From contig LGRX02035111.1 of the NCBI GenBank assembly GCA_001247695.2, positions 62,001-126,000 of the forward strand: a stretch of 64,000 nucleotides of DNA. Reading direction: 5' to 3'. A program made the position numbers and the translations under genes. The notes beneath the pieces were generated by a model. That model searched no databases, was not told where the DNA came from, and worked only from the letters and a program-made list of their open reading frames with translations. Shown here piece after piece: positions 1 through 52,469 of this stretch. The number at the start of each line of letters is the position of its first letter. The first letter of the stretch is position 1. The stretch comes from Cymbomonas tetramitiformis. Taxonomy: Eukaryota > Chlorophyta > Pyramimonadophyceae > Pyramimonadales > Pyramimonadaceae.

Positions 1-3000
1 GCAGCTCACAATGGCACCAGCCCATTCGTCGTACAGACGGACGCTAGTGCGGTGGCACTGGCTGGGGTACTGATGCACGCAGGACCTGGGGAAGGGCCTG
101 CAGCCGATCGCCTTCGAGAGCAAGCAGTTCTCATCAGCGGAACAAAACTACCATGCAGGGGAACGGGAGTTAGCAGCGATTCACCACTGCACGACTCAAA
201 CGTGGAGGCATTACCTTATCTTCACGGAGTTCCGACTCATGGGAGACCATGCGCCGCTGAAGTGGCTCTTCGCTCCAGGCCGGGAACTCAGCAGGCGACA
301 GGCGAGGTGGTACGAGGACCTGGTGGAGGTGGGCGTGCATGCGATGGAGCACGTGCCAGGGCGCACACTGGTGGTGCCGGACGCGGCCTCTCGCCGACCG
401 GACTATGCGCAGACGACAGCGCGAGAAGGGCTTAAGGAGGCGGGGTATGTGGACCCGAGCACCGACCAGCCTGTATCTGCGGAGGAGGGCCGAAGAGCAG
501 CGGGAGCTAAGGGGAACCCAGCAGAAGTAACCAAAGCTAAGGCTGAGGTGAATGCAGCGGTAAAGGAGAAGAAGGTGGGGAAGGAGGACCCTAGCTCTCC
601 GTTGGATGCGGGGTTCAGTTCAGCAGACGAGGAGGACGAGGAATACCCTCCAGTGAACCCTCCTGTGGTGACTGGGAAGCTGACGCAGCTTAATGGACTG
701 TGGTGGGCGGAGACCCCCGACCTGTGGCGCGACGCCATGGACACAGTGGCCACGATGGCGGCAGCCTCTGCCCTTGCGGGAGTAACTACTAGAGCGGCAG
801 CAGCAGGGCAATCAGCAACAGGTGATGACCCAGCGTCTCCCTTGGATGCAGAAGCCGTTCTGTCAGAGACACCCCCAGCACAGCCGCCTGCAACAGTAGC
901 TCAGAAGCCAGCAGCGGAGCAGCAGCAGCCATCAGCAGCAGCACAGCAACCAGCAGCACAACCGCCAGCGACAGCAGCAGAGCGACAGCAAGCAAGTCCA
1001 AGGATCCGACCCGGAGGACCGCTGGTGGACAAGCAGGATTGGAAGCTGATCTCCTCGGAGTTCGCTAGGCTGCAGAGCAGGTACTCTCGAGCACTGGGAG
1101 GACCGTTCCAGGTGGATGCGTGCTGTGATGCTATGGGCCAGAACCGACAGGTGAGCACATTCTGGACTGATTGCTTGAACGAGCAGTGGAGGGGCCGTAT
1201 CGTCTGGTGCAACCCCCCCTTCTCAGACCCCAACGTGAGCATTGAGGACATTCTGCGACACTATGCATCTGAGGCAAAGCAGGACCCGTGCCACACAGCC
1301 GCCTTGTTCTTATTGCCCGACTTCCCTCAGGCGAGTTGGCGACCGTTGCTACGCGAGTTTGGCCTGGAGATCGTAGAGGTCATTCCAAGGGTGAACGAGC
1401 ATGGTGAACCCAACAGACTGTTTACCTCACCTGGAGAGGAGAGGGGTCACCGCTCGGCTCTGCAGGAACTGCCAGTCCCATGGCCAGTGCTAGTAGTGAT
1501 AGCCAGGCCGCAGAAACCATCCAGCAAGTTGGCCCCACGCGAGAGACCCACAGCGCAACCAGCAGTCACGCTCTCCGGAGCAGCAGCCAAGGTCAGAGAC
1601 AAGTCGGGAACAGTGGAGCCAGGGGTGTTCTTGCGAGCGCTGAGAGCTGAGCACAGACGCAGCGAATATCTCAGGACCCTGAAGCAGGAGCTGCTAAATA
1701 CCCAGCATCATCGCACAGAGCATTTCCGGTTGGTAAGCGACATCATCTGGAGAGTGGCTGAAGGGCGCTATCAGGTGGTACTGGCGCCGGACTCGCCCTT
1801 GCGGGAGCTAGTGTTGAGAGAAGCTCACGAGGCACCATCCGCAGGCCACACCGGCAGAGACAAGACGCTGGAGCGGGTCCGAAGACGTTTCTGGTGGCCG
1901 CGAATGGACCTAGACATAGCGGAATGGGTAAAGACGTGCGTGACGTGCCAGCAGACCCAGCCGCGACAAGGGTATCCCATGGGACTGTTGCAAACGCATC
2001 GAGTGCCAAGCAGGCTCTGGGAGGTTGTCAGCATCGATTTCGTAACCGGGCTTCCGATGACTCAGCGAGGGGTAGACGCCTTCACCACCTTCACCTGCAA
2101 GCTGAGCAAAATGGTACACGTGGTGCCAATGACCTACAACGACAGCTCTGCAGAAGTAGTGGTGAGATTGTTCATGGACGCAGTATGGCGATTGCACGGA
2201 GCTCCAATGAAGATAGTGTGTGACCGAGACCCCCGCTTTCGCGACGCCATGACTCAGGAGTTCATGCGACTGATGGGCGTCAAGGTAGCTAGCACCACTC
2301 CCTACCACCCTCAGAGCGATGGGCAAGCGGAACGCAGCAACCACACCGTGGAGCGTATGCTGCGCTGCTACGTTGCTGAGAACCAGGAGGACTGGGACCT
2401 CTGGGTGACACCTGTGGAGTACGCGATCAATGACTCCACGTCAGCAGCGACTGGATTCTCTCCCTTTGAGTTGGTGTACGGACACGCTCCCGCAACACAG
2501 CTGGACTTCTTCATGGACGCAGCCTTAGAAGGTGGGTCAAGACAAAGAAAAGGTGGGCGAGTAGCGGCGGATAAGAGAGGAACTGCGCACGCGCTGGCCA
2601 AGCAGTTCGCGCGGCAATTACAGGCAGCGCGGGTGAACCTGCGGATGGCCCAGCAGCGCATGATGGAGCAGTTCGACGCACGACACCGGCTACAGCACAT
2701 TAAGGTGAATGATCAAGTATGGGTGGATGGTCAGCACCTGACTCTGCCTGGAGATCGGGGAATGAAGCCGAAGCTGCGCAAGCTCAGGCACGGCCCCTTA
2801 CGTGTAGTAGAATGCCTGTACAGCGACAGGCAGCAAGAGCTGCCAGAGCAGGACCGTGGAGCTCCGTCAGCGTACAGGTTAGAGCTACCCGTGCACTGGA
2901 AGGTGCACGACGTGTTCACAGCGGATCGGCTCACCCCAGTTCAGTCGGGAGCCGAGCACTTCGTGAGTAGGCGGGAGGAAGTGGCACCACCGCCAGTAAT

Positions 3001-3839
3001 GGTAGAGGGTCAGAAGGAGCGCGAGGTGGAGCGCATCATTCGTACGCGTTTCAGAAAGCTAGGCGGGAAAACTGGCGGGTCAGTACAGGAGTGGTTGACC
3101 AAGTGGAAGGGATTACCACACAGTCACAGCCAGTGGCGGACCCGAGAAGACCTGGAGGGCAAAGGAGGCAGGCTGGAACCCCTAAGGGCTTTTGAGGCCG
3201 ATGAGGAGAAGCAGAGGAGGGCCCCAGAGAAGAGGCGTAGGGAGACGCACGGTCAGCAGCTGGAGCAGAGGGCTCAGCTCATGGCTATGAGAGCCCCCAC
3301 CCCGAAGGTTTACAGTAAGGGTGCCAGTCAGGTCTATCAGCCGCATCTTACGAAGGTGCAACATCCTGTGAGGATCCTCGTCCTCTTCTGTGGGACTGGG
3401 TCTGTAGAACAGCAGTTCCAACGACAGTTCGACGGCTGCGAAGTGGTGACTGTGGATATTCTTCCTAAGTGGCAAGCAACATGCACCGAGGACATTCTCC
3501 ACTGGAACTACAGGCTGTACCCCCGACACTATTTCGACGTGATCTGGGCGAGCCCACCATGTAAGGAGTACAGCAAGGCCAAGACTGTGGGAGTACCGGA
3601 CCTGGAGCTGGCTGATCGGCGAGTGAAGCGTACTCGGCAGATCATCGAGTACTACGACCCAGCATACTACTTCATTGAGAACCCAGCGGGAGATGCTCTG
3701 CGAGGGCTGCACACGCGATCTGTGATGAAGGGTTTGCCCGCTCCTCACCCCGTCTCCTACTGTAGGTATGGGACACCCTACATGAAACCTACACATATCT
3801 GGACGAACGCCGTGCTACCCGTACCCCTGCTGCAGTGTA
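1..3839 (+). pseudogene. Gypsy pol: RNase H, NPPF methyltransferase-like, integrase, chromodomain, C5-methyltransferase (5' part)
   Basis: The protein is open on the left and broken twice. Frame 1 (1-78) holds the RNase H start with a TDAS motif; the domain continues in frame 2 from about 80, so one extra base lies at 76-80. From 239 the frame is open to 3883. Domains by residue of that frame: end of RNase H (1-60); Pro/Ala/Gln-rich linker; a methyltransferase-like domain at about 265-430 with NPPF at 1211-1222; integrase zinc-binding region (530-575, H..H..CxxC); integrase core with D600, D662 and E698 (DD35E); chromodomain-like segment (about 920-976, ending in a WKGL motif); cytosine C5-methyltransferase from about 1043 with motif I FCGTG, motif IV SPPC (3551-3562) and motif VI ENP (3677-3685). 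The last codons before the stop at 3883 belong to CACTA-A, not to this gene. Confidence 0.9.
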
Positions 3840-3862
3840 CCCTACCAAATAAGGCCGGGTCC

Positions 3863-5442
3863 ATGCGGTCCCGGGACCAATAGGGACCCATCATGGACCC
3901 CATATGGACCCGTATGGACCATATGGACCCCACATGGACCCGTGAAAAATGGATCACATGGACCCGTCGATGACGCCTTCGGGCTTTTACCACTAGATTG
4001 GTCCAAAAGTTCCTATCGGTCCGGGGTGGGTCCCACACTTGGTACCACTGATTTCTCGGTCCATGCGACATTTCACCATGGGTCCATGCGGTGTTTCGTC
4101 GGTCCATGTGGGGTCCATGTGTCCATCGAAATCTCACCACGGATTCCTCGCCGCTGGCGTGGGGGACCTCGCATGGACCCGTATGGCCATGCTTTAAGGC
4201 AGCATGTGGTGCATGGACCGACCCTGGACCGACCCCGGGCCGACCCTGGACCGACCCCGGACCGACCCTGGACCAAACATGATCGCTCGGACCCAGGTTG
4301 GACCAGCACGGACCAAACCTCCGATAGGCGCCCAACCGTACGGACCATATATGGACCTCGCGTGGACCCCGCGTGGACCCCGCATGGACCCATGGGTGGA
4401 GCACTCGAGATGGACTGCACGGGGGAGGCGATGCGTGGACCTCGCATGGACCTCGCATGGACCCGGGAGTGGCGCACCCAAGATGGGGTGCGTGGTGAAG
4501 GCGATGCGTGGACCTCGCATGGACCCAGCATGGGCCCCGCATGGACCCGTAGGGTGGCACACCCGAGATAAACTGCGCGGGGAAGGCGATGCGTGGACCT
4601 CGCATGGACCCGTGGTGTGGCGCACCCAGCATGGGTTGCGTGGTGAAGGCGATGCGTGGACCCCGCATGGACCCCGCATGGACCAGTGGGGGCGCACCCA
4701 AGATGGACTGCACGGGGAAGGCGATGCGTGGACCTCGCATGGACCCGTGGGGTGGCGCACCCGAGATGGGGTGCGCGGGGAAGGCGATGTGTGGACCTCG
4801 CATGGACCCGTGGGGTGGCGCACCCGGCATGTGTTGCGTGGTGAATGCGATGCGTGGACCTCGCATGGACCCCGCATGGACCCGTGGGGTGGAGCACCCG
4901 AGATGGACTGCACGGGGGAGACGATGCGTGGACCTCGCATGGACCCGTGGGGTGGAGCACCCGAGATGGGGTGCGCGGGGAAGGTGATGCGTGGACCTCG
5001 CATGGACCCGTGGGGTGGCGCACCCGGCATGGGTTGCGTGGTGAAGGCGATGCGTGGACCTCGCATGGACCCCGCATGGACCAGTGGGTGGCGCACCCGA
5101 GATGTACTACACGGGGGAGGCGATACGTGGACCCCGCATGGACCCGTGGGGTGGCGCGCGATCAGAAATACGGTCTGACTGCTGGGTCAGCGACAGCGGC
5201 CTCAGCGGAAATCGAGTCCATGCGATTATTCGCCGGGGCCATGCGCTTATTAAGTGGAGTCCATGTAATTATTAAGCGGGTCCGTATGCTTATCTTGCGG
5301 GTCCATACGATTATTCCGCCGGTCCATGTGGGTGGTAATAAGCGGGTCCATGCGACTATTGTGTGGGTCCATACGGTTATTCAGCGGGTCCGTGTGGTTA
5401 TTTTGGGGGTCCATACGATTATTCGACGGGTCCATGCGGTCA
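3863..5442. repeat. CACTA-A left subterminal array
   Basis: Dense copies of a CATGGACC/GGTCCATG motif. Three zones can be seen: scattered copies at 3880-4350; higher-order units of roughly 60-80 bp around GATGCGTGGACCTCGCATGG at 4380-5150; and about 30-bp units with GGGTCCATACGATTATTC-like sequence at 5190-5440. Arrays of this kind are where the TNPA protein binds in plant En/Spm. Long low-complexity ORFs here (rich in MDP, WTPHGP or GPRM repeats) arise from the repeat and are not treated as genes. Confidence 0.9.
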
Positions 5443-5446
5443 TTAA

Positions 5447-5686
5447 CCCCTAAGCCGGTGTTTGGGTCATTTTTGACCCAAAGGGCGTTTGACCCAAAGG
5501 GCAATATGTGCATATATAAGTGGATATAATGAACAAGATGGTGGATGTTCGTATCAAACTGTCGGGTCAATCGACACCTCTCACATGATGACTTTATTTG
5601 ACATGTTTCCACAAGAAATATTGCATATATGCAACGAAATGCACAACGACCCGAACATTCCCAAAAAAATAAAACCGGCTTAGGGG
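5447..5686. mobile_element. 240-bp MITE with TTAA target duplication inside CACTA-A
   Basis: Terminal inverted repeats CCCCTAAGCCGGT are perfect on both sides and flanked by TTAA (5443-5446 and 5687-5690). TTAA duplication plus C-rich termini suggests piggyBac-type mobilisation, which is an inference. The interior is AT-rich with an inverted TTTGGGTCA/TGACCCAAA pair near the left end. Subterminal motifs of CACTA-A resume to its right at 5700-5770, so the MITE landed in the array. Confidence 0.85.
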
Positions 5687-5943
5687 TTAAGGAAGTGCAT
5701 GTGACAAAATGACCGCACGGGGAAGGTGATGCGTGGACCTCGCATGGACCCCGCACGGACCCGTAAAAATATTTACACTGTACATATGTTACACATTTGT
5801 CAGTAAGAAACGGTTGGGTTGGTAGCATACTAATATTATCATACATCGAAAATAGGGGTATACAAAAGGTCCCCGATAGGTCCAGTACGGGTCCGCAATG
5901 GGTCCGGAACGGGTCCAGGGTGGGTACGCTCGAGGTCCATGCT

Positions 5944-8900
5944 TCAAGCGGCGTGATCATCTTCATCGTCAGCAACTTCACCAACAAAGTCAACGGTCCG
6001 GTCCAGAACCACCGCCAATATACCGGGCGTCTCTCTGATTCCCATAGGCAGTCGGCGGCGGTTCAAGGGTGTGATTGCTAAGCGCTTAGGCAGCCACGGT
6101 ATTGGCACGATGCAAACCTGGGACTCGATTTCTTCGGCTCGGATAATAGAATCCTTCGTGGCCCATGGCAAGTCGGTACGTAGAAATACGGTCTGGCTGA
6201 TGGGATCAGCGACAGCGGCCTCTTGAGGAAACCACCTGACTTTCACCAAAATGAATGGGTCGTGGCCGTGGATCGACATCTTGAAGACATCCAGCAACTC
6301 CGCGTACCTGATTGATCAGTATAATTCTGGGTAAAATTTGAGATCGCCTAACTCAACTGAACGAATACAACGAGGGCAACATGTCGTCCCCATTAGACCG
6401 GGATGTGGGCGGGATGGGGGCACGCACCAGTCCTGATTTTCGTATTGGGGAGTGCGAATGCCGTCAACCATTTTGTGTCCAACGAATATATCTCTGAACT
6501 TCACAAGCATGTATCGCTGAATACTCTCCTTATGAAGGTCTTTATCACGAGCTCTGAACATGCTACGTCCAACCTTTACATAACTGTATCGTAAAAGTCG
6601 TGGCGGTGGCGAGGTAATGAAGTTGATCTCTTCCGTGGTAAACTGCTTGACGACCATTCCTTCGCCATTGGGGTTCGGCTCCTTCCTCCACGTGCTGGCG
6701 TTGTCGAAGGTAGGGTCTACAAGACGCAACGGGGCAATCCACGGGTTTCCAGCAAGTCGTTGCCGACGGACACGTTGTTGATGCATCCTGTTTTGAGAAT
6801 CAGGTGAAGACATTAGTCCGATGCGGGTCCCATGCCGGTCCTAGGTCCCGCCCCCATGGGGACATCGTTTCCGATGGTTCCAAAGGACGACTAGCGAGTG
6901 CGACTGACTATAAAAGTGATGCAAGTGTGGGTACAAACCGTCGAGATCGCTGATTTTCCGCCCTGATGTGTGCTGCAGCCAATTCAAACTGATCTCGAAG
7001 TTCGGCAAACCAATCGAAATGAAGGTACAGCCAGGATTTGATGTCCTTAATGGTATCTGAAGCCCAAAATATCGAACTTTATTTGAAGAACACGATATCG
7101 AAATGCAATACATGGGGCGGGGTCGGGGCGGGGTGTGGGACCGATGGGTCCGATATGTTGACTCAACAGGGGCGGCACGGTATCACATACCTTCTGATAG
7201 CAGCGTGCTCTTGCCTTGACGCTCCACCCCGGATTTGAGCATCATTGAAACCCGCAAAGGTTCGGGGAGTGGATATACAGGTGGCTTCGATCCTCGCGCC
7301 AAATCGCTCAACCCGCGACAAAGGTTTACGAGGCGCTCCAGCTCTATATTCTTCATGATGCTGGCCACCGGACTCGATCGCGTTTTGACCGCCCGTTTCA
7401 TTCGGCCAAAGTAGTCCTCGAAGCAAAACATCCATAGCTCACGTGCTGGACCGTACATCATGAGCTGCGGCACGACATGAGTAAGGAGATGTTGCATCAT
7501 CACCAAATCGGCTGGTGACATGTGATCTTCACCAAGCTTTAGGACCACTTTCACTCTCTCAATGAGACCTGGCATTTCCTGGAAAAGGCAAATAGCAGAT
7601 CTCAAAAGGAAATAGTATGGGTACAATATAGGTGCATGCGGACCTACAATGCCCACGTGGGTACTAAATCAGGGAGACGATCCGCCCCCATCGGGGCGGG
7701 GCCCCGGACCAAGATTGCTGCTAAACTAGGCAATGATGCTTTACCTTCAAAAGAATTGTAGGGCTGACAACCTCACGAACGATGGAGCATATCTCCCCAA
7801 CATAATCCGCGTGCAAAGGCCTTTCCACGAGCCCATCCGGACCAGGCCAGCTCGACAGAACAGGCAAAATTCCTGAAGTCATCGCCGTGATACCCAATGC
7901 CGCCTTTAATCTTCGAGGAATGAAATTCTCGTTAGCCTTCAGTTGCATAAGCTTCTGGGGCAGTGGGCCCCATGATTTTGGTGCGCCCAGAACGTCACGT
8001 AACCACTCGGTCATGGCAATTCTCGACGGCTTCGACGGTGCCCACGGAGATGGTTTACCTGCAGTGGGCACAAAGCGACAGGTCAAGATTGTGCCCCTAC
8101 TTGGGGCCCAGCTCCGTACCCGTTGGGGCTAGTGTGGGTCGGGACGGGTCCCACGCGTGGTACCCCTCGACTCTAGCAACTTACCAGCAAGTCGCTGAGC
8201 TGCTGTTCGAACACGTGTAGCATTGCGAGGTTGCGGAGGCGCAACAAGCCAGCCCCGATTGACCTTAAACTCTCTTGCAAAATTCCGACAATGCGCTGAC
8301 CAGTTGCCACCACAAATCGATTTGTGTAAGCGTTGGACCAAGTTGCTCAATATGTGCATCAAGTCCAAAAGGTACATGTATATGACGTTGAAGTACACCA
8401 ATCTGGAGAACGCGCAAGGAGTTTTCACACCAAACTTCTTGAAACTATCTTGTAACTGCTCTTTGGAAGCGCCGTTCTTCGCCATGCCTTTGTGCAACTG
8501 CTGTATTTGTCGGACACGTTCATCGGTGTGGAGGTCAGTCTCGGTATCGCCACCTGGGTAAGTAAGTGTACAATCCATAATGAATTGGGGCAGATTGGGG
8601 GCGGGCTGTTGGCGGTACGGGGGCGACTTATGGGCGGGACAGGGGCGAGGCCAGGGCGGGACTCGGACAGTGCTTAGTAAGCACCAACGCTCCTATCACA
8701 AACTTCTCGGTAAACGAGTATAAGACGGTGGCGGGATGGAGGCCGCACGCCGGACCGACATGGGACCAGCATAGGACCGATCTATATGAGTATGATTGTA
8801 CATCCAAGAATGGGCGGACCTCGTCGCTTTTGGAACTTCTCCAGAAATATCGTTTTCCCCATCTTGCTTTTCCCCCTTCCAATGCCGTTGATCAGGCACT

Positions 8901-10737
8901 TCAAGCATCCCATAATGGCAGTCGCAGCCATTCGTCGGGATGCGTCCACAAGGCCAACGTAATCCATGAGTACCGCGTACACCATGCATCGAACTGTAAA
9001 TGGTTCTTTCTCGATGACGTCGAAAACCGTATGACCAGTGGACCACAGTACCTCTAGCTCATCCACCAGGTGGTCGTAAAAGAGCGAAGTGTCCTTGGGC
9101 TTGCCCTCCGCAATCCCATACGTGAACACGTGCTTGTGTCGTTCTTCCCCGGGCATGTTGCCAATCGTGAAGCAAATGGGCATGATGCTGGATAGCTGAT
9201 CGTTGAACGGGTTGATTCCATCCGCGCAAAGAATAATCCATAGATTCCGGCGGTCCGCGAAGAATCTGGGGAACTTCTGGACCAAAGCTCGGAGAGCAGG
9301 AGAATCTGCATTCGCAAGGCCGGGTCCAATGTCATTTCCCCATGGGTCCGGCAATTCGCCCTCAAATGTACCACATACCGAACCAACTATAATATCAAAC
9401 TAATCGCTGATTGAGCTAGGATGACGAGAGATGGGTCCCACAGGTTTCCCTATACAGGGCGGGATAAGGGACCGATAGGGACGGGAAAGGTACTATGGGA
9501 CACTCAACAGGGCTGAGCAATTTTACATGATTCGCACCATGTATCCCGGTGACTTTGTCTGGTTGTTCGTCAGGAAGCTTGGTCGCATCGAAGCTCCGCA
9601 CCATCGCGGCATATTCTGGACAGAGGAAGATGTACTCCAGCAGTGATTCCAAAGGCCAGTATCTGAAAATAGATCTTGCTCGACCGTTCGTTCTCACCCC
9701 GTCGTGTTCTTTTCCCAACCGATACCTCGAAGTCTTACACTTTGGACATTTGTCGAGCTCGCTGTGTTCACCCTTGTACATGATGCAGCCCTTGATGCAC
9801 ACGTGCACCTCATTGTACGCTCCGTAGAAGGGTTTAAACCGCTTCAATGTCTCGGGGTACGTGCGAGGAAGGACTTGCCGTTCTTCGTTGTTAAGGAGCC
9901 TTCCCCGGACGATGTCGAGAATAGATGCAAAGATGGACTGAGTCCCGTTGTGCTCGACCTGCATCTCCAAAAGGTCAAGTAACAGTCCGTTGATCTTGGA
10001 AATGTCCTGCAGGGCGCCAACACTTCATCAGTCCATCCGCGCTTGGTACTAGAAGGATGCATGTGTAAAGTCATGGGGCAATATGGGTCCCCATCCGGTA
10101 CCATACATGGGACCGGGCCGTTCACACAGGTCCCGTATCGGTCCCATGTGGGTACCTTAACTTGCAAGCAGCACTCACTACTGTAACCGTACGAGGCGGT
10201 ATGTACTGGTCCTAGACCGGTACCACGTCCCGTACCGATAGTTCCCCCACATGTTCCCAATGGGTACCACATCCTGAACACCGCACTCACCACATCGCCT
10301 TCGCCATCGGAATCATCCGCAGAGTCGTCGGTAAGCTCTTCGGCATCTTCATCCTCCTCGCCACCGCCTTCCCCGTCGCCGCTGTCGTCTCCGGATGACG
10401 ATTCGCCATCATCATCACGTAGTTGTTTCCCAAACCCCAAGTCCTCGATGTGTTTCGCCAACGCTTCAAAGTTGGATATCACCTCGGCTTCCCGAGGGGT
10501 ATGGTCACGATCCGCACCGCCCATCTCATCATCTCGGGGAGATGATCGCTCATTCTCTTCTTCGAACTCCTGTTGCGGAATGAATACACCATATTGTTTG
10601 ACATGTCGGAGAATTTGACGGCGGCCAAGTTCACGTGTCGTAAGCCCTCGGTGGTGGCATTGATTACACGGACAAATGCCATACTCTGAAACGTAGCGTC
10701 CAGGGCGGCTTCCTTGTATGCCCTGTGGAGTCGCCAT
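5944..10737 (-). CDS. TNP2-type CACTA transposase (TNPD-like), multi-exon
   Basis: This is the catalytic transposase of CACTA-A. Coding blocks on the minus strand: 10737-10291 (N-terminal Cys-rich CPCxxC region then an acidic stretch, donor GTGAGT); 10006 to ~9534 (CPKC zinc-binding segment); ~9362 to ~8790 (TNP2 core, with a CADGxxPFND motif and a GLxxASRR segment); ~8578-8185; ~8080-7745; ~7600-7190 (DUF4218-like, GPARELWMFCFEDYFG); ~7070-6890; 6813 to ~6430; 6297-5944 (C-terminus). Each block has a collinear counterpart in the CACTA-B transposase. Introns carry GGTACC/GGTCCATG-like motifs resembling the element's own ends. Exact borders of the middle exons are approximate. Introns and frame are compatible with an intact gene, but this is not proven. 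Confidence 0.85.
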
Positions 10738-12282
10738 CTATCGTCACATAGACAAGTGCCAAACCATTTTATCCAGCATGTTGCAGGTAGAACGCCTGCA
10801 AAAGGTCGTACACGCTGGGGTGAGTAAGTGTTTAAAGCGAGCAGTACTATACGGGGGCGGGGTCTCGGACCGATAGGAATCACTCAGTCCATAACCGGTC
10901 CCGAACCCCGGACCCGTAGGAACCATGCCTTGGACCCCACACGGACCCGTCGGTACCATGTCTGGGACCCCACATGGACCCGTCGGTACCATGCCTTGGA
11001 CCCCACACGGACCCCACACGGACCCGTTCGGAATCCACCGCAGCAAGACGCCGCAACCCTAATAAACCCTATGGTCCCATAGGTGGAACACAGCCCGCCC
11101 CTATGGGGTAAAGTAAAAAACAACCGGGTCTAGGGCGTGGGTCCAGGTCCATGTGGTCTAAAAATGTCTGACCATGCATGGACCTCGCATGGACTTGCCA
11201 AATAACCCGTTGAACCACTGTGGGACCGACGGCATGGACCCGTAATGAAGCCTATGGGACCGACGCACAGGTGTTTTTGCCTTTTTTTGCTTAAAAAAGT
11301 GCATTTTGGGGTTACGCGTTACACATGGACCTCGCTTGGACCGACCAGTGTTAAAGGCTCGCTCTCACCCTGCCCCCGTGAGGATTAGCGGGTCCCCGAG
11401 ATTTTACAAAAAAAACAACTGGGTCTAGGCGTGGGTCCGGGTCCATGTGGTGCAAAAATGTCTGACCATGCATGGACCTCGCATGGACTTGCGTCGGACC
11501 ACTGTGGGACCGACGGCATGGACCCGTAATGAAGCCTATGGGACCGACGCACAGTTTCACATTTTTGGGGATTCGAGTCACATGGACCTCACGTGGACCT
11601 ATCTAAAGAACGTCGGCGAGGCAAGCAGCGGTGTAAAGAATTCCTCGTTGAGAGATAGCGAAAATCGACCCAAAAATCGAAAAAAACAAAATTTGGGCAC
11701 TAAAAGGGGCAGGTTGATTGCAATATATCCTGCCAAACAAAAAAGCAAAAATGTTTTTTTCCCGTGAGATATCGGCATTTTTGTGCGTGCGATTTTTTCA
11801 AATCGAACTAAAGGGAAAAAATCGAAGAACAGGTGCTCTGTGGGAATGCTTTCCTGTTCCAGCGAACGGTGCAATTGACGGACCAGATGAACCCCCCAGT
11901 CTTAATCGGACGGTCTCCATGAGTTACTGAAACTCAAAATGGCATGAAGGCGTGGGTGGGCACCCATAACGCCCCTTGTGCACTACCCGCGTCGTTGGCG
12001 GCAATCGCCCATCGTGCCACATGCACGGGGAACTGCCAGTAGAACACAAGGGGAATCGTGGGTGCCCATGCCTCCAAGGGGATTCGAACCCCTCACCCTC
12101 ACGTGAAACGCGTTCGGCTTATCAACATTTGACCACTCGGCCAAGCACCCACGATGATGGAAATTCGCCGCACGGCAGCAATTATATTCATAAAACCGCA
12201 TGCCCTACCGAGAGCACTCTGAAACGAACTAGAAAAGAAAAAAAGAAATTGAGACCTGCAAATTTGAAATCGCAGCCCACCA
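10738..12282. other. CACTA-A divergent intergenic region
   Basis: Lies between the transposase (minus) and the accessory gene (plus), so it probably holds both promoters. It includes repeated GGACCCCACACGGACCCGT-like units at 10900-11030. A direct duplication of roughly 150 bp follows (about 11111-11270 and 11404-11550), each copy containing AAAATGTCTGACCATGCATG. The tRNA-like/hairpin block is at about 11940-12170. No other gene is supported. Confidence 0.7.
11945..12160 (-). other. tRNA-like sequence plus adjacent hairpin, conserved between the two CACTA elements
   Basis: On the minus strand there is an A-box-like TGGCCGAGTGG and a B-box GGTTCGAATCC inside a class-II-like (long variable arm) tRNA shape. 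The best anticodon-loop reading is AAG (Leu-like). The acceptor stem does not pair as in a normal tRNA: instead ATCGTGGGTGC pairs with GGCACCCACGAT, giving an extended outer stem. A second hairpin with CCCCTTGTG/CACAAGGGG arms follows. A homologous block occurs at 22619-22790 in CACTA-B. Probably a tRNA-derived element rather than a working tRNA gene. Confidence 0.65.
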
Positions 12283-14601
12283 TGTACCGATACAGAGACA
12301 GTCCCATGCGAGTTGACTCGATCGCGTGGACCGACGTTGGACCTCGATGGAACCAATGCTGTCCACCTTGGTACAATGCCTCGCCTGGCGGCGCAGAAAG
12401 TCAAAGAACTTTGAATTCTTTGAAGACCTTCGTTCCTCGCACTACCGCCTCACAACCTCAGTCCTCACAGCCTCACGCACAACCTCCGTCCGTCCACGCA
12501 GCACAGACATCGATGGGACCTTCACGCAAGACACGCAGCAAAGACGAGAAGAAACTGTCTTCCCGGCAGACGACCCTCCCTCAGTCTGGAAACACCCAGC
12601 TGGGGGAGCTCATGCGCCAGTTTGCAGCCCAGCAGCAAGAAATGCAGGGTCTCCGGCAGCAGCTGGCAGCAGGGCTTGCTGGTGCTGCTGCTGTGCCTGC
12701 GCAGCACCCGGCCGTCAAGGTGGAAGCGGGTGCTACAGGCAGCGCGCCTGGCGATGCGGGGGGGGTCTTCCACACGACAAAGGAAGCCCCCCAGCATCTC
12801 GTGAAGTCATTGCAGCGGTCGACAAATTTAGTTTGCGGAAATAATTTAAGAAGTGGAGTATGGGCCCCTGGATGCACCATCTCCACGCTGGAGGAAGAGA
12901 GCCTGGACGAAGCCGTTGAGGCGATCAAAACGGCGACGCCAGGCTTCTCGTACGAATGCGTGCGGGATTACATAAAAAACCGACTGACATATATGAAATG
13001 TCAGACCACCACCTTGGGGAGGTGGAAGCTAAAGACCACAAAAGAATGCCCGACGGGTTTTTTCCAGCGTTTTGACGGCCCGGCCCGCGGCGTCCGGGTG
13101 GCATCGGACGCCACCGGCGAGCTGCCCGGCAAGAAGACCACCGAGACGGTGCTGAATTACTTCGACGCCGGGCAGCCCACGGAGGGGCCCCTCTTTGAAG
13201 CCTTCTGGGCACTGGAGGGGGTGCAGTACGTCAAGCCCGCCGACGTGCAGCCCGCCAACTTGGGGAAGCCCGCCGCCGGGCTGGACAAGGATCAAGGGGA
13301 GAAGATCCCTGCCCCAGTCGCGCCCGAGAAGCAGGGCAAGGAGAAGAAGAGTTCGTTCGTGTGGCCACTGGTAAGCAAACATACCTGTTATGTTTTTTTA
13401 CCCTGGACCCCTTTGTTTTAAGAGGGACGGTACAGGGGCCACGTTTAGCCCTCGTACCGAACCCACGCTGGACCGACCCACAGTGTGGTAGGGCCGCTCC
13501 AGCTGAACTGCAGTGTGTGAGTGTGGGTACGATGTCGCTGACTGCTATTGGTTTGGGGCTGGGTCGCAGGCGGATGACTCCACACTGGTGCTCGGGTCAT
13601 TCGTCGCCGTGCACCGCATCCGCTCCAAATCCGTTACCCCCTTCCCCGAGGAGTTCGCCTCCTCACTCCTCGACTACGACAACGATCGGTTCGAGTTGTG
13701 TTACGGGGTGGTGGAGGGGGTCCCCGGGGGGAGCAGTGTGAATATTGCCAAGGGGGGCAAAATCCCCAAGGACGTCGTGGAGGTTTTGCTCAAGTTCGGA
13801 GTAAAACCTTCCCCCCACGACGAGAACGACGAGGCCGGGGACCATCACGACCGCATCCTTGCGATGCACGAGTTATCCATCACGAAGTTGCTCGCTCTCC
13901 CCTCCAACTCAGAAAAAAAAATAAACAAAACAGAACTCCAGCACGACGCCAAGTCGATAATGGAGGCAGGCATCCTGGTGTGGTGAGTAACCCTTCAGTT
14001 CACACGTTTTGCCCTCTGTAAACCTGGGCCCGTTTACCTCTGTAAACCTGGGTCCCGCACGGTCCGGTGTTCTGCCCGCACCCCGCCCCCGTATGTCCTG
14101 TATGGTCCCACGTGTCGCCCCAACCCCGCCCCAGTATACTCTGTGTACTGTATTGAGGTGTGGTGTGTCTACGTATGCAGGTTGCCAGTCAGTAACGTCA
14201 AGCTCAGCAAAAATGCCTCTAAGGTATTTGCTGGTATGAAGGTGCAGAGCGCCAAGGAAGCTTCCGAACGAAGTACTGCCAGCCACGCCGCCAAGGAGGC
14301 CCGCAAAAAGGCGGCAAAGGAGATGCTCGGCAAGGCCAAGAGGAAAGCGGATGGGGGCGACGAAGCCGAGAAAAAGAAGAGGAAAAAGGGCAAGGCAGCT
14401 GTAACGGAGGAGGCCGAGGAGGCCGAGCAGGCCGAGCAGGCCGGGGAGGTGGTGGAGGACATGGAGGCGTCCGGGGATGGCGGGGATGGTGATGAGAATG
14501 GTGATGGGCCCTCGGATGGGAATGGAGAGGATACGCAAGACGAAGATGCGCAAGACGAGGAGGGGGCAAGGGCAGGGTATGATAGTGGTGACGAAGAATA
14601 G
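12283..14601 (+). CDS. CACTA accessory protein (TNPA-like second gene), three exons
   Basis: Exon 1 ends at donor GTAAGC near 13369. Exon 2 runs from about 13570 (acceptor CGCAG) to about 13985 (donor GTGAGT). Exon 3 starts near 14180 and ends at TAG 14599-14601. The start may be 12283 or, by comparison with the CACTA-B protein, the Met near 12511. The protein has a Gln-rich coiled-coil-like stretch, then a conserved block with a LGRWKLK motif and FDGPA, and ends in Lys-rich then Glu/Asp-rich sequence. The CACTA-B counterpart has GRWKWK and YKGPA at the same place. I do not recognise a named domain. The position divergent to the transposase, together with the subterminal arrays, suggests the array-binding partner, like plant TNPA. 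Confidence 0.75.
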
Positions 14602-14696
14602 CAATCATTTTGTGTAGAACTGCCGTACTGTTTTTGCCGTCCTGACCACTTCACTTGTAAATATTGTTTATAATTGCATTGTATACTAAAATAATC

Positions 14697-15800
14697 ATAT
14701 GGACCCGCTGAATAACCATATGGACCCACAAAATAATCGCATGGACCCGCTTGTTGATCACATGGACCCGTTTTACAATCGTATGGACCCGCTTAATACC
14801 CACACGAACCCGCCGAATAATCGTATGGACCCACAAAATGATCACATGGACCCGCTGAATAACCGTATGGGCCCACAAAATAATCGAATGGACCCGCTTG
14901 CAGAGCACATGGACCCGTTTTACAATCGCATGGACCCGCTTAATACCCACACGAACCCGCCGAATAATCGTATGGACCCACAAAATGATCACATGGACCC
15001 GCTGAATAACCGTATGGACCCACAAAATAATCGAATGGACCCGCTTGCAGAGCACATGGACCCGTTTTACAATCGCATGGACCCGCTTAATACCCACACG
15101 GACCCGCGAATAATCGTATGGACCCACAAAATAATCACACGGACCCTCTGAATAACCATATGGACCCACATAATAATCGCATGGACCCGCTTGCAGAGCA
15201 CATGGACCCGTTTTACAATCGCATGGACCCGCTTAATACCCGCACGGACCCGCCGAATAATCGTATGGACCCACAAAATGATCACATGGACCCGCTGAAT
15301 AACCGTATGGACCCACATCATAATCGAATGGACCCGCTTGCAGAGCACATGGACCCGTTTTACAATCGCATGGACCCGCTTAATACCCACATGGACCCGC
15401 CGAAGAATCATATGGACCAACAAAATAATCATATGGACCCGCTGAATAACCGTATGGACCCACAAAATAATCGTATGGACCCACAAAATAATCACATGGA
15501 CCCGCTAAATAACCGTATGGACCCGCTTGCAGAGCACATGGACCCGTTTTACAAACGCATGGACCCGCTTAATACCCACATGGACCCGCCGAAGAATCGT
15601 ATGGACCCACAAAATAATCACATGGACCCGCAGAATAATCGCATAGACCCACATACTAATCACATGGACCCGCTTAATGCCCACGTGGACCCGCCGGATA
15701 ATCATACGGACCCGCTTAATACTCACACGGACCCGCTAGATCATCGCTTGGACCCGCCTAAATACCACATGGACCTGCCGGGTAATCATATGAACCCATC
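14697..15800. repeat. CACTA-A right array of ~30-bp units
   Basis: Regular units of about 30 bp with a constant ATGGACCCGC or ATGGACCCAC core alternating with AATAATCG/AATACCCAC-type spacers. The units form higher-order blocks of about 180 bp: the run of CAGAGCACATGGACCCG plus TTTTACAATCGCATGG recurs at 14900, 15040, 15195, 15345 and 15530. Unit length is a multiple of three, so long MDPLNN-type reading frames appear on both strands; they are artefacts of the array. Confidence 0.9.
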
Positions 15801-16315
15801 GAGCGAGGGGTCCATGCTGGGTCCATGTGATGCATTCCCTACGGGTCCATGCGAGGTCCATGCGTCGCATGGACCCGTAGGAATGTCTGACCATCGGACC
15901 CATGTGGCCCTCACCGGTCCATGTGGGGTCCATGTGATGATAACTGAGTGGTCCCCGCGAAGTCCATGTGATTGTACCTACCGGTCCATGCGGGGTCCAT
16001 GTGGGGTCCATGCGTCGCATGGACCCGTAGGAATGTCTGACCATCGGACCCATGTGGCCCTCACCGGTCCATGTCGGGTCCACATGCTACGTACACACTA
16101 AGAGGTATCACATGGACCCCACATGGACCCGTAGGGAGGGTCCATGTGAGGTCCATGTGACTGAAAACCGTATGGACCCCACATGGACCTTCAGTGGACC
16201 CCATATGGACCCCTAGGGAGAAATGTCTGACCATTTGGGGCATGCGAGGTCCATTCCAAGTCCACGGGGGTCCACGTGAGGTCCATGCGGGGTCCATGTG
16301 ATTTATGAATCACAT
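15801..16315. repeat. CACTA-A outer right subterminal repeats
   Basis: GGTCCATGYG motifs in both orientations up to the terminal inverted repeat. A block of about 130 bp containing GTCGCATGGACCCGTAGG and GACCATCGGACCCATGTGG occurs twice (about 15860-15925 and 16005-16075). No coding potential. Confidence 0.85.
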
Positions 16316-16341
16316 GGACCCGTCCCTATTTGGTAGGGGTA

Positions 16342-16610
16342 CCCAAGCAACACCATGTCCCGCGAGAGCTGTGCTGGGAAAGCACGAGACTTCATCGCAG
16401 GCAGGAGTTTCAGCGTCCAGAACACGAGGCATGGGGTCAGCGCAAGCAGTGTACGCGATTCCCCGCACCTTGTTGCACCATCTGTTCTGTGGACTGAAGT
16501 TGGGGAAGCGCATGAGCGAGGAGAGCGCAGCAGCAGTCATGGACATCATCGCCACTCTGACAGCGCAGACGGACGAGATCCCGATGCAGGAACAAGATAC
16601 TGAGGTCTAA
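16342..16610 (+). pseudogene. C5-methyltransferase C-terminal part of the gypsy pol, displaced by CACTA-A
   Basis: Removing CACTA-A plus one GTA copy joins the split codon A(3839)+CC(16342-16343), and the reading frame continues without a stop to TAA at 16608-16610. The downstream peptide (about 89 residues) contains a CPxRAxxGKH stretch and an AIPRTLL segment. These resemble the end of bacterial-type and retroelement cytosine methyltransferases, where a Cys/His-containing strand and an 'IP..L' helix follow the RYG-like motif VIII (CRYGTP at about 3762). I infer that this is the missing end of the enzyme. On its own it has no start and no catalytic motif. Confidence 0.8.
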
Positions 16611-16940
16611 GACCCTCAGGGCGCAAAGCAGCGCAAGACCCGCAGAGCGAGAGGAGTACCAGGGCGACAGAACTTGGCAGCGTAATTCGGGGACGGAGCC
16701 TCGGGAAACCTCCAGCGCGGAAGGGGACTCAGACCCAAGGACTGAGGGGCACGGGACCCAAGAACCCGAGGCTTAGAAGCCAGGGGGACTCAGACCCGAG
16801 GACTGAGGGGCACGGGACCCGAGAACCCGAGGCTTAACAGCCAGCATCACTGTGCATGTTTGTTGATCCCCAGACAATGTAAATGCAGGCGAACACTAAA
16901 CGCTAGCGAGGACGTAAGCGCGCGCCAAAGGGGGGGAGAG
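16611..16940 (+). other. Gypsy 3' untranslated region with ~60-bp tandem duplication and polypurine tract
   Basis: No ORF is supported. Two near-identical ~60-bp units (about 16723-16842) both contain GGACTCAGACCC and end in CCCGAGGCTTA followed by GCCAG. The purine run AAAGGGGGGGAGAG at 16927-16940 sits immediately before the presumed LTR start, as expected for a plus-strand primer. Confidence 0.7.
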
Positions 16941-16941
16941 T

Positions 16942-17698
16942 TGTGCTAGGGTAAGTCACGAGACAGAATGACGACGTGTCAGAATGGCGAGTGACGGGTA
17001 CTATGACAGTCACCAATGACAGGCATTTATATGACCAGATGACGAGAGGTCTGACAGAAATGACTGACAGAAATGCCTGACCCGAAAGTGAGTTTTGAAG
17101 GTTGAGAGAATTGGTGGAAACCATCCCAGAAATGGTGGGAACCATTTCATATTCAAACAGCCACACAGAACTGGAGGGAAACCAGGAGAGCCCCAGTTCT
17201 TGCCACATCATCAGATCTATGACCATTCAGTAATTCAGAGCAGAGATCATTGTATGACTGGCAGCTGCAGCCCAAATGCCAAATGACAAGACCTGTCATA
17301 GGATATGTGAACATGAAGTGACTGAGCACTGTGACTGTCGAATTCGGATGAGATCTGAGGGAATTCGAGTCGACATGTTACTACTTAAAGAGCTGAACAA
17401 GCTCTCATGCTAGTTTTTTAATTAGTTACACATTGGCACTGACCTCTGGTGTCTTGTAACTTCAAACAGTGAAAGTTCATCTAAGTATAAAGAAATATCC
17501 GACAGTATACAAAGCATTCCGATATCAAACTATGGTCCTAGTACCATATTCCCTGTAAGTGTTACTTGCACCCTTGTGAGACTGGTTCAGTCCTCACAAC
17601 CGAACAGTTTTACAGTTCAGTGAATTTATAGTGAATTTATATTACATATTACAATTTCGACTACACAAAAAACCGCCCGTGCGATGTTCCTAGTCACA
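16942..17698 (+). repeat. Probable 3' LTR of the gypsy element (right limit uncertain)
   Basis: It starts TGTGCTAGGG directly after the polypurine tract. The sequence is non-coding. The right end at CCTAGTCACA is chosen only because it forms an imperfect terminal inverted match with the start. No second LTR is available in the window to confirm it, and other ends a few tens of bases upstream are possible. Confidence 0.5.
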
Positions 17699-17726
17699 GG
17701 GGGGCTTTCATCGCACGGGCGGTTTT
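17669..17726. repeat. Perfect 18-bp inverted repeat (hairpin)
   Basis: The arm AAAACCGCCCGTGCGATG (17669-17686) is exactly complementary to 17709-17726, with a 22-base loop. It lies at the presumed junction between the gypsy LTR and the zinc-finger/dioxygenase gene. Function unknown. The T-run after the second arm would suit a terminator-like structure, but that is speculation. Confidence 0.8.
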
Positions 17727-18799: not shown

Positions 18800-19960
18800 C
18801 ATCCGTGTGGATTTGCATATGGACAGCGTATGGACATCGCAAGGACCCATATGGACAACCGTATGGACGGTCTGGACAGATTTCTGGCGAAACCTTGATG
18901 CATATGTAAGAACCATACGGACGACGCGTAATTGTGGTGTCCATATGAAAATGTCCCATGGACACCGTAAGGATTTCGTAAGGACACCGTATGGACGGCC
19001 GTATGGACACCGTATGGACAGAACACATGTCCACATGGTGTCCATACGCATGGACAGAGGCACTATCCAACCGCACGACAGCGCAGGGACACCGTATGGA
19101 AACCCGTATGGATAGCATATGGACGTCGTAACCGGACGTGCGGACAACGTATGGACTACCGTAAGGACAGCGTATGGATAGCGTATGAACATCACAGTCG
19201 CACGTGCGGACACCGTATGTAATGCCGCAAGGACGGCATATGGACGGCGCATGGACATCGTAAACGTGCGTGCGGACGGCATATGGACTCCCATAAGGAC
19301 AACGTATGGACGTCGCATGGACATCGTAACCGGACGTGCGGACAACGTATGGACCACCGTAAGGACAGCGTATGGATAGCGCATGGACCTCATAATCGCA
19401 CGTGCGGACACCGTATGTAATCCCGTAAGGACGGCATATGGACGACGCATGGACATCGTAAACGTGCGTGCGGGCGGTATATGGACTCCCATATGGACGA
19501 CGTATGGAGGACGCATGGACATCATAATCGCACGTACGGACATCGTATGGACCACCGTAAGGACAGCGTATGGATAGCGCATGGACATTATAATCGCACG
19601 TGCGGACACCGTATGTAAATCCGTAAGGATAGCATATGGACGACGCATGGACATCGTAAACGTGCGTGCGGACGGCATATGTACTCCCATATGGACAACG
19701 TATGGACGACGCATGTACATCATAATCACACGTACGGACACCGTGTGGACTACCATATGGACATCGTAAACGTGCGTGCGGACGGCATATGGACACCCAT
19801 AAGGACGGTCAATAATAGATAGTCCACACGCATGGACATCGGTGTCCGTACGTGTGGATAGCTTGTGTTTATAGATATCAATGCGTATGGACGATGCAGT
19901 CCACGCGTACGGACATCGGTGTCCGTGCGCGTGGATAGCTTATGATACACAAAATATTTA
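18800..19960. repeat. CACTA-B left subterminal array with 198-bp higher-order unit
   Basis: Basic motif CGTATGGAC/CGCATGGAC with CGTGCGGAC variants. A higher-order unit of about 198 bp, starting GCGTATGGATAGCG, recurs near 19171, 19369 and 19567. The unit is a multiple of three, which produces long VRTAYG/VHTVSAR-type reading frames that I do not count as genes. Confidence 0.9.
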
Positions 19961-40163: not shown

Positions 40164-42127
40164 GGCGGTCCAGGTCCTATGGGGTGCTCTTCCGGCCTAT
40201 GGCCTACGGTGATGTGACTGCCCCACGTGCCTATGCCATGGACCTCCGTGCCAGTCTGGTGGTGTTCCCTGATACCCACAGTGCTTGCCACCTTCCCTTC
40301 TCCGACCACCCGGAGCAGGACCAGTGGCTCCTTCCGCACTATGTGGTCCCACCAGAGGACACGGTCGGTACATTGCCAGCCAGCGGCACACTCAGCTTCA
40401 GTCATATCTCTGCTGACCTCGCCGAGCGCCTGTACCACACTGCAGCTCCTGATCTGCCACTGCCGGGTGGGTACCGCCAGGCACTGTCTATGCCTGATGG
40501 GGCTCAGTGGGAGGAGGCTATTACCGGTGGGGAGGTGCAGCCTCTGATTGACCAGGGTAAGATAGAACCGGTGGAGGTGCTACCCGACGGTGAGATCGCC
40601 ACCAGCACCATCTTTGTGCTGAATAAGCCCTGGAAGCCACGGGATGGTCTACCGCCCGTCCAAATTCATAAAGCTCGGATGGCCGTGGCTGCCACATGGC
40701 ACTGGGGCTACACCCAAGCTGAGACCGCATGCACGGTAGCAGACCTGCCCACCTTCCGCCTTCTCTTCATCCTGTCTATTATCTTTGCTGGTATGGGGGT
40801 TATGGTCTATCACTTTGACGTCAGTCAGGCCTTTGTTCATGCCCGTCTGGAGGTTCCTATATATGTGCGGTTCCCCTCTGGGTATATGTATAAGGGCAGA
40901 TATGGCTATGCCAAGCTGCTCTATGCTCTCTACGGGCTACGGACGGCTGGTGCTTCCTGGCAGAAGCTGGCCAACAAATTCATGAAGTCCTTCACCTATC
41001 AGGGAATGCACTTCACCCAGTCCACATATGACCCGTGCCTATACTATATTGTGACCTCTGTGTTCGTGGCCTTCGTGGCTGTCTACGTGGATGACTTCGG
41101 GCTGACATGTGATGATGCCTTCCACCAGGCTTTCTGGGCAGCTTTCCAGGCGGCATTCAAGAGCAAGAATCTTGGCCGTATGACAGCCGTCCTGCAGCTT
41201 GCGGTTGACTATGATCGGTGGGGCATTGCATTGTCCCAAACCAGGCAGATCAAGGAGCTCATGTCCAAGTTCAAGCTTCCGGCCAAAACCTATCACAATC
41301 CGATGGATGTGAACCTCGTTATCCAGAAGCCGGAGCACCCTGATCTCACCCTTGTCACCCCGTATCTCTCACTGCTTGGGTCCCTGCTGTGGATTGCACG
41401 GTGCACCAGGCCAGATATCTATTACTCAGTCATATATCTGGCACAGTTCTCCTCATGCCCCTCGGCTCAGGCCTGGGAGGCACTTCAGAGAGTGGCTCAG
41501 TATCTGTACTTCACACGGCACTACCGTATCCGTTATGCTTACCCCAGTGCACCGCTTTCTGTGCTCACAATACAGGTGTATTCAGATGCTGACCATGCTC
41601 GTGACAAACTCAACGGGTGTCTCTCCTACTCGGGAGGCATTGTATTCCTCAACGGCATGGTCCTTCATTGGGTATGTGCCCGCCAGACTGATGCTGAGAT
41701 GTCCTCCACTGGATCTGAGTATGTGGCCGCCTCTGTGGTTGGGCAGCGGGCCATGTCTGCTATCCATATGATTGTGGAGATGTTCGGCTTTATCAGAATT
41801 ACGCAGCAGGAGCCGGGTGTGTCTGCTCTGGCTCTGTCTACGGCCTTCCCTGCAGCTGACACTTCTTGGATGCAGAGGGCGGCCGCGTTCTTCGAGAATC
41901 ATGCTATGGGTCATGGTCAGATGGGCCCCGCCTCCCCCCTACACTACCGGGAGGCTGAGCCTGTTCCTGACAGCAGCCTGTATGCCCTGCCTCACGCCGT
42001 GCCAGTACCATATTTGCACGGGCTACGAGGACGGTCCGCGGGAGTACCACTCTCAGCGGTCTGGCATGTATGGTACCTCTGGACCCTTCATTCCCAGGCT
42101 GGAGCTCCCGGTGGCTGTCATGATTGA
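39860..42127 (+). CDS. Copia pol 2: reverse transcriptase and RNase H (frame -1 to pol 1)
   Basis: Reverse transcriptase motifs: STIFVLNKPWKPRDG, FDVSQAFVHARLEVPIYVRFPSG, the catalytic YVDD (41084-41095), and LLGSLLWIARCTRPDI. RNase H begins with VYSDADHARD and has SSTGSEYVAAS, where copia RNase H usually shows SSTEAEY, so a conserved acidic residue reads Gly here. The frame drifts into non-conserved sequence after about 41960, while the RNase H end is found in another frame. The first in-frame ATG-type start near 39893 is arbitrary. Confidence 0.88.
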
Positions 42128-52464: not shown

Positions 52465-52469
52465 AAAGT

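What the first reader, a model, noticed from the sequence alone, without database searches (positions are those of the whole stretch)
1031..16610. One gypsy retrotransposon encodes both an NPPF-type and a cytosine-C5 methyltransferase
The sequence shows an NPPF motif (1211-1222) in a DxCx..W..VWCNPPF context like phage Dam-type adenine methyltransferases, placed between RNase H and integrase. After the chromodomain it shows a C5-methyltransferase with FCGTG, SPPC and ENP motifs. Cytosine methyltransferases captured by retrotransposons are known from some algae and dinoflagellates; carrying both chemistries in one polyprotein is, as far as I know, not commonly described. The element might write its own chromatin marks on integration.
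Basis: partly seen in the sequence, partly recalled or inferred. Interest (0 to 1): 0.88.

Follow-up and report, generated by a model that had tools for sequence, protein, structure and literature searches.

The report
Jumping gene with two DNA methylases
An abundant jumping gene of what is very probably a marine green alga carries, fused to its own replication enzymes, two different virus-like DNA-methylating enzymes (one of the adenine type, one of the cytosine type), a pairing we did not find described, which may let each new copy chemically mark itself.

Summary
Window 1-17,606 is the 3' part of a 28.45-kb Ty3/gypsy chromovirus (665-bp LTRs, GTTTT target duplication) in an 852-Mb assembly, very probably Cymbomonas tetramitiformis. 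Pol reads PR-RT-RNaseH-Dam-integrase-chromodomain-C5. The NPPF domain just passes Pfam's Dam cut-off (28.5 vs 28.1 bits); the C5 domain matches phage C5 enzymes (phrog_757, E 4e-14) but fails PF00145's cut-off. Both models have class-I methyltransferase folds. This copy is damaged: a frame break in RNase H and a 12,496-bp nested insert in the C5 domain. Other copies are open over both domains; of 15 sampled Dam hits, 12 of 13 testable carry C5 at the expected spacing. dN/dS is low in both domains, but also in most linkers. Related polyproteins, and a marine contig labelled bacterial, have the same architecture. Retroelement Dam domains group apart from 36 phage ones. Dam in DIRS and C5 enzymes in several retroelement classes were known; both in one gypsy polyprotein I did not find in ten searches of open-licence papers. 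Activity, substrate and purpose are untested.

The parts
1..70 (+). end of the PR-RT ORF that starts upstream of the window (L010 7337..); frame break near here, inside RNase H
   Evidence: pieces left apart
89..325 (+). RNase H, rest (P0001 residues 6-84)
   Evidence: PF17917 E 1.2e-18
1025..1543 (+). Dam-like N6-adenine methyltransferase domain (residues 318-490 as modelled; Pfam match 343-391)
   Evidence: PF05869 28.5 bits vs cut-off 28.1; phrog_111 E 1.9e-11; AF2 model pLDDT 89.3
1211..1222 (+). NPPF catalytic-type motif
1790..2311 (+). integrase: H2C2 zinc finger and DDE core
   Evidence: PF17921 E 4.7e-23; PF00665 E 2.8e-7 (31.2 bits, just under its cut-off of 32.6); Ty3 polyprotein match in PDB, E 8e-45
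3023..3163 (+). chromodomain
   Evidence: PF00385 32.4 bits vs cut-off 25.1
3365..3842 (+). C5-type methyltransferase, first piece (motifs FCGTGSVE, ASPPC, IENP, IWTN)
3837..3842 (+). left copy of the 6-bp target duplication (GTACCC) of the nested insert
3843..16338 (.). 12,496-bp nested insert inside the C5 domain; ends roughly inverted (TACCAAATA..TATTTGGTA); contains tandem arrays rich in ATGGACC
   Evidence: flanks contiguous in L031; arrays
16339..16344 (+). right copy of the 6-bp target duplication (GTACCC)
16344..16610 (+). C5-type methyltransferase, C-terminal piece, to the stop codon
   Evidence: HMM match 16344-16502, E 4e-7
16927..16940 (+). polypurine-tract-like AAAGGGGGGGAGAG before the 3' LTR
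   Evidence: sequence
16942..17606 (+). 3' LTR (TG..CA); the 5' LTR lies upstream on the contig at 51,154-52,578, split by about 748 bp
   Evidence: 133/133 and 99.45% of 545 columns
17607..17611 (+). target duplication GTTTT, same as the 5 bases before the 5' LTR

Best explanation
SHOWN: a high-copy Ty3/gypsy chromovirus family whose pol polyprotein is PR-RT-RNaseH-[Dam-like N6-adenine MTase]-integrase-chromodomain-[phage-type C5 MTase], both MTase domains conserved along with the rest of pol. INFERRED: both domains are active DNA methyltransferases that travel with the integrase in the particle or pre-integration complex and methylate the element's own newly made double-stranded cDNA (adenine and cytosine) before or at integration. 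The incoming DNA so carries marks that protect it from nucleases or early silencing. Shown: architecture, conservation, modelled fold, many copies. Inferred: activity, substrate, timing, benefit.
For: Dam above Pfam cut-off and stronger in relatives (P0013, P0014, P0017: E 4e-9 to 5e-11). C5 matches phage C5 MTases (tblastn 28-36% identity in 16 records, 12 covering at least 80% of the query); PF00145 above cut-off in P0013. Class-I folds for both. Long open frames with PR-RT-RNH-Dam-IN-C5 in L013, L014, L020, L025. 12 of 13 testable sampled Dam hits have C5 at the expected spacing. dN/dS: Dam 0.07 in group B and 7.2 synonymous vs 0.0 non-synonymous differences (mean pairwise) in A2; C5 0.08 (A2), 0.08 (A1-A2), 0.14 (B); integrase 0.04 (A2), 0.13 (B). 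Same architecture in a distant contig. CpG is below expectation in pol (240 vs 333.5) more than in the rest of the window (3036 vs 3433), with TG and CA in excess. Fusion to integrase puts the enzymes where the cDNA is (inference). cDNA methylation was discussed for cytosine MTases of other retroelements in PMC5890265 (passages seen).
Confidence: 0.5

Rival explanations
1. The domains methylate RNA: the Dam-like domain acts on adenosine of the element's (perhaps capped) RNA as PCIF1 does, and the C5 domain on a tRNA such as the primer.
Against: Sequence similarity of the Dam domain is to phage DNA MTases (PF05869, phrog_111, TIGR01712 below its cut-off), only E 0.3 to PCIF1. C5 matches phage DNA MTases at 28-36% identity.
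Confidence: 0.15
2. The enzymes modify host chromatin around the insertion site, the chromodomain or PHD finger choosing the place and the MTases marking it.
For: Chromodomain here; PHD fingers in P0005, P0012, P0013; integrase fusion.
Against: No methylation data; at most a slight CpG signal in copies. Chromodomains are common in gypsy elements without MTases (recalled).
Confidence: 0.2
3. The domains have lost catalysis and serve as nucleic-acid-binding or structural modules, or are passengers.
For: Fusions of inactive MTase-like domains exist in other systems (recalled); the window copy's C5 is split; dN/dS is as low in most linkers as in the MTases; P0010 has a changed motif.
Against: Motifs invariant in the 9 Dam and 5 C5 sequences aligned; all four C5 motifs searched in 11 of 13 sampled copies.
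Confidence: 0.1
4. Assembly chimera or chance neighbourhood of two genes.
For: The window copy has a frame break and nested inserts; the published assembly is a long-read hybrid (PMC10675990, passages seen).
Against: Open frames of 2494-3016 aa with all domains; protein records P0005, P0012, P0013, P0014, P0017; a contig from another source.
Confidence: 0.01

Closest known systems
KnitGypsy-Dnmt3 (Klebsormidium nitens; de Mendoza 2018, PMC5890265, passages seen)
   Same: Ty3/gypsy with a cytosine MTase in pol, Ka/Ks under 0.2 there
   Different: Its MTase is Dnmt3, and the passages seen mention adenine MTases only for DIRS. Here the C5 domain resembles small phage MTases by sequence (no DNMT3 chain among PDB sequence matches at E<=1; no DNMT3 tree was made), and a Dam domain is added.
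DIRS retrotransposons with a Dam (MT) domain (PMC3783388, passages seen)
   Same: PF05869 domain with RT and RNase H in pol; the Dam domains here group with DIRS-like ones against phage
   Different: DIRS use a tyrosine recombinase and lack DDE integrase and aspartic protease; the element here has both, plus LTRs, a chromodomain and a C5 domain.
SymbioDIRS-Dnmt3 / SymbioLINE-Dnmt (PMC5890265), DNMT3 in LTR copia and DIRS elements (PMC12344493; passages seen)
   Same: Retroelements carrying cytosine MTases
   Different: Other element classes; cytosine chemistry only in the passages seen.
Chlamyvir-related chromoviral pol genes and the >10,000x-coverage scaffolds of Cymbomonas (PMC10675990, PMC5741210; passages seen)
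   Same: Possibly the same or sister elements: chromodomain, RNase H and cytosine MTase at very high coverage (my inference)
   Different: No adenine MTase and no polyprotein architecture in the passages seen; the word methyltransferase does not occur in PMC10675990.
ParB + N4/N6 MTase accessory protein of a Sola1 DNA transposon (Ectocarpus; PMC12477816, passage seen)
   Same: Transposon-encoded DNA MTase thought to mark the element
   Different: DNA transposon, separate gene.

Membership tests
Ty3/gypsy LTR retrotransposon (chromovirus) | direct LTRs with TG..CA and a short target duplication | tested here: met
   665 bp, 5-bp GTTTT
Ty3/gypsy LTR retrotransposon (chromovirus) | order PR-RT-RNaseH-integrase | tested here: met
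   (over two ORFs in this copy; one open frame in L013, L014, L020, L025)
Ty3/gypsy LTR retrotransposon (chromovirus) | chromodomain after integrase | tested here: met
   PF00385 32.4 bits vs 25.1
Ty3/gypsy LTR retrotransposon (chromovirus) | gag with CCHC knuckle | tested here: inconclusive
   ORF of 1682 aa upstream, zf-CCHC 20.4 bits vs cut-off 20.8
PF05869 Dam N6-adenine MTase | family score over cut-off | tested here: met
   28.5 vs 28.1
PF05869 Dam N6-adenine MTase | NPP[FY] motif and class-I MTase fold | tested here: met
PF05869 Dam N6-adenine MTase | methylates adenine in DNA | not testable with these tools
   no assay or methylation data
NCBIfam TIGR01712 phage_N6A_met (equivalog) | score over curated cut-off | tested here: not met
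   20.7 vs 97.05 bits
C5 cytosine DNA MTase (PF00145) | family score over cut-off | tested here: not met
   window copy 12.5 vs 22 bits; the relative P0013 meets it, 23.5
C5 cytosine DNA MTase (PF00145) | motifs I, IV (PPC) and VI (EN) and fold | tested here: met
   the names of the motifs are recalled
DNMT3-type retrotransposon MTase | DNMT3 class by sequence | tested here: inconclusive
   DNMT2 and DNMT1 but no DNMT3 among PDB sequence matches at E<=1; fold best DNMT3A
DIRS element | tyrosine recombinase instead of DDE integrase | tested here: not met
   DDE integrase domains found in pol

The most novel reading that the evidence does not exclude
The element carries a complete two-chemistry DNA-modification kit of phage type (6mA plus 5mC) and uses it as phages do, to pass its cDNA through nuclease defences, in an alga whose genome holds an integrated giant virus and many polinton-like viruses (PMC10675990): an anti-restriction retrotransposon, its Dam module passed around between gypsy, copia and DIRS elements.
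Probability: 0.15. Interest if true: 0.9.

Novelty: new variant of a known kind. Interest (0 to 1): 0.75.

Why it matters
Retrotransposons are usually seen as targets of DNA methylation. Here one large family encodes candidate enzymes for both adenine and cytosine methylation in its polyprotein and has kept both. It gives a natural test of whether mobile elements methylate their own DNA, and which base matters, in an alga (if the host is rightly named) for which Nanopore reads were made (PMC10675990). It also points to a phage-type adenine MTase module shared by gypsy, copia and DIRS-like retroelements.

Tried and rejected
Assembly chimera or chance: rejected.

5mC decay footprint: mixed and weak. 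C<->T differences among copies by context: group B CG 282 of 15,071, CHG 224 of 12,775, CHH 534 of 32,316; A2 43 of 1,776, 42 of 2,582, 115 of 5,332; A1 2 of 2,098, 6 of 2,542, 27 of 5,310. So CpG is at most slightly ahead in A2 and B and behind in A1. CpG in pol is 0.72 of expectation (0.88 in window 18,001-64,000, 0.93 in the insert), with TG and CA in excess everywhere; codon bias could do this. GATC is not depleted in pol.

The genome-contig scan with C5 gave 2 of 40. No single donor can be named.

Is P0012 (with PHD finger) from this alga? Its C5 finds nothing above 56% identity among 150 scored of 7563 candidate places in G000, so probably from another organism.

Dropped rows: near-copies P0014, P0015, P0016, P0018, gene models P0004 and P0009, and rows under 38 bits were left out of the Dam tree; P0021 (37.5 bits) was put in by hand. 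P0004, P0019 and L108 were left out of the C5 tree. L029 was left out of dN/dS because its C5 continues in another frame. Two of 15 sampled places had no sequence at the C5 position.

Literature: ten searches of an open-licence PMC library. The listings are capped (20 of 52, 15 of 26, 10 of 25; all shown in the others). No title or abstract start listed names a gypsy element with both MTases. 'PF05869' with 'retrotransposon' gave one paper, on DIRS. Of seven papers (PMC5890265, PMC6338049, PMC12344493, PMC10675990, PMC5741210, PMC12477816, PMC3783388) I saw passages found by word, no whole text.
Full report
WHAT IS THERE. ORF 74-3883 (P0001, 1269 aa) contains RNase H, a PF05869 Dam domain (residues 343-391 matched, 28.5 bits against a cut-off of 28.1, E 1.4e-6), integrase H2C2 and core, a chromodomain and, weakly by Pfam (E 0.099, below cut-off) but clearly by PHROG (phrog_757, E 4.3e-14), a C5-type methyltransferase.

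THE WHOLE ELEMENT. The window is G000:C24931:62001-126000. Upstream DNA shows a 1682-aa gag-like ORF with a near-threshold zinc knuckle and an ORF with aspartic protease and RT that runs into the window. LTRs: window 16,942-17,606 matches contig 51,154-51,285 and 52,034-52,578 (100% and 99.45%), the 5' LTR being split by about 748 bp. There is a target duplication GTTTT on both sides, a PBS-like TGGTATCAG 2 bases behind the 5' LTR and a purine tract before the 3' LTR. Total 28.45 kb with nested inserts. The LTR identity suggests a recent insertion.

DAMAGE IN THIS COPY. Frame break in RNase H near window 70. A 12,496-bp insert (3843-16338, 6-bp duplication GTACCC) splits the C5 domain; in L031 window 3300-3842 and 16339 onward are contiguous (100% and 98.6%). 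So this copy is not expected to make the whole polyprotein.

HOST. The contig carrying L001 has 223,047 bases, the same as the longest contig listed for Cymbomonas protein CYMTET_41060 (P0009), and the genome size (851.7 Mb) is near the published 914.3 Mb (PMC10675990, passage seen). The identification is an inference; lineage.

COPIES. In its own genome PF05869 had 7257 first-look candidates; the 150 scored were all over the cut-off. The window's Dam: 8467 candidates, 150 scored, 97-100% identical, 145 of 150 without a stop. The window's C5: 7595 candidates, 150 scored, 97-100%, 149 of 150 without a stop; 56 of 150 in frames of 1000 aa or more. First-look candidates are not confirmed copies. 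At least eleven places appear in both lists on one strand 2340-2352 bases apart (read off by hand). For a sample not chosen by frame length I took every tenth of the 150 Dam hits (15): 2 lie too near a contig end; of 13 testable, 12 carry C5 at the expected place and 11 keep all four motifs searched; one (L137) has no C5 there. This sample is from the best-scoring 150, not from all candidates. Of the 10 contigs fetched for a Dam in a long frame, all 10 have C5 in the same frame, one only partly; of 7 fetched for C5 in a long frame, all 7 have Dam. Both of these sets were chosen for long frames.

SELECTION. Nei-Gojobori counts on codon alignments of 17 copies: Dam dN/dS 0.07 (group B, 36 pairs), and 7.2 synonymous against 0.0 non-synonymous differences (A2, 6 pairs); C5 0.14 (B), 0.08 (A2), 0.08 (A1-A2); integrase 0.13 (B), 0.04 (A2). 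The linkers are a control that limits this: Dam-to-integrase 0.00 (A2) but 0.69 (B); integrase-to-C5, which holds the chromodomain, 0.01 (A2) and 0.14 (B). So pol as a whole is conserved, and only in B does a linker stand out as relaxed. In A1 (window, L031, L032, L035) differences are few and ratios higher (C5 0.35, integrase 0.45; Dam 0 synonymous and 1.0 non-synonymous), so A1 alone says little. Copies were chosen for long frames, which selects against stops, not directly against amino-acid changes. Between A1 and A2 the C5 domain (dS 0.24) is far closer than Dam or integrase (saturated), and in 11 of the 12 sampled copies with C5 that domain is only 84-86% like the window's although their Dam is 98-99% like it: the C5 end seems to have been exchanged between subfamilies.

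OTHER ORGANISMS. P0012 (2192 aa), P0013 (2166) and P0005 (1457) have Dam, a PHD finger and C5 in one polyprotein. P0012's C5 is at most 56% identical to anything scored in G000. A 13,451-bp contig binned as Verrucomicrobiaceae (NHEN01000032.1) holds RNaseH-Dam-integrase-C5 in an open frame of 1325 aa; it looks like a misbinned eukaryotic element. Identities to the window: Dam 42%, integrase 49%, C5 50%. Over six elements Dam and C5 identities track integrase (r 0.92 and 0.80) and each other less well (r 0.65; 15 pairs that share members), roughly as expected if the two domains have been together since a common ancestor, with some exchange.

WHERE THE DOMAINS COME FROM. In a tree of 54 Dam rows the 18 retroelement or own-genome rows (gypsy, copia, DIRS-like and five unclassified) lie on one side of a branch with support 100/99 against 36 phage rows. 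The phage rows were found by similarity, several forks are open and the root is unknown, so one capture is not proven. The window's second, copia-type element (37,401-42,127) also has a Dam-like domain (E 5e-10). C5: 7 retroelement rows against 6 phage or bacterial rows, support 89/93. 'DIRS-like' rests on RT-RNaseH-Dam order without DDE integrase; no recombinase was looked for.

HOW IT MIGHT WORK. With both enzymes tied to integrase, the simplest use is on the element's cDNA in the pre-integration complex (inferred). RNA substrates and marking of the host site are live rivals. The mutation data are weak either way: CpG is low in pol but recent differences are hardly enriched at CpG.

NOVELTY. 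Known: Dam in DIRS (PMC3783388, PMC5890265), cytosine MTases in LINE, DIRS, gypsy and copia (PMC5890265, PMC12344493), a cytosine MTase on very-high-coverage Cymbomonas scaffolds together with chromodomain and RNase H (PMC5741210). Not found in the searches listed: a Dam domain in a gypsy element, or both chemistries in one polyprotein. [quoted passage not shown] Most subscription papers were not searchable.

Noticed in passing
window 37401-42127: A copia-type element (integrase core, SH3, RVT_2) with a divergent Dam-like domain with NPPF upstream of its integrase core (HMM E 5e-10; not found by Pfam).
   Followed up: partly
window 3843-16338: 12.5-kb nested insert with 6-bp duplication, near-inverted ends, tandem arrays of 21-bp and 63-bp periods and an ORF (11970-13421) without a Pfam match.
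   Followed up: partly
window 4531-5157, 14688-15797, 19105-19768: Tandem arrays whose units contain ATGGACC (or ATGGAC) recur in separate places; the origin of this motif is unexplained.
   Followed up: no
L011 9100-9149 and window 17673-17722: A hairpin-like palindrome (CCGCCCGTGCGATG..CATCGCACGGGCGG) lies on both sides of the element, on the left touching the target duplication.
   Followed up: no
L119, L125 (NHEN01000032.1): Contig of a 'Verrucomicrobiaceae' MAG that holds a gypsy polyprotein, so probably misbinned.
   Followed up: yes
L031-L037, L126-L138: The C5 end of pol seems to have been exchanged between subfamilies: Dam 98-99% identical with C5 only 84-86% in 11 of 12 sampled copies, and C5 much closer than Dam between A1 and A2.
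   Followed up: partly
P0005, P0012, P0013: PHD finger between Dam and integrase in related elements; none was found by Pfam in the window's protein.
   Followed up: no
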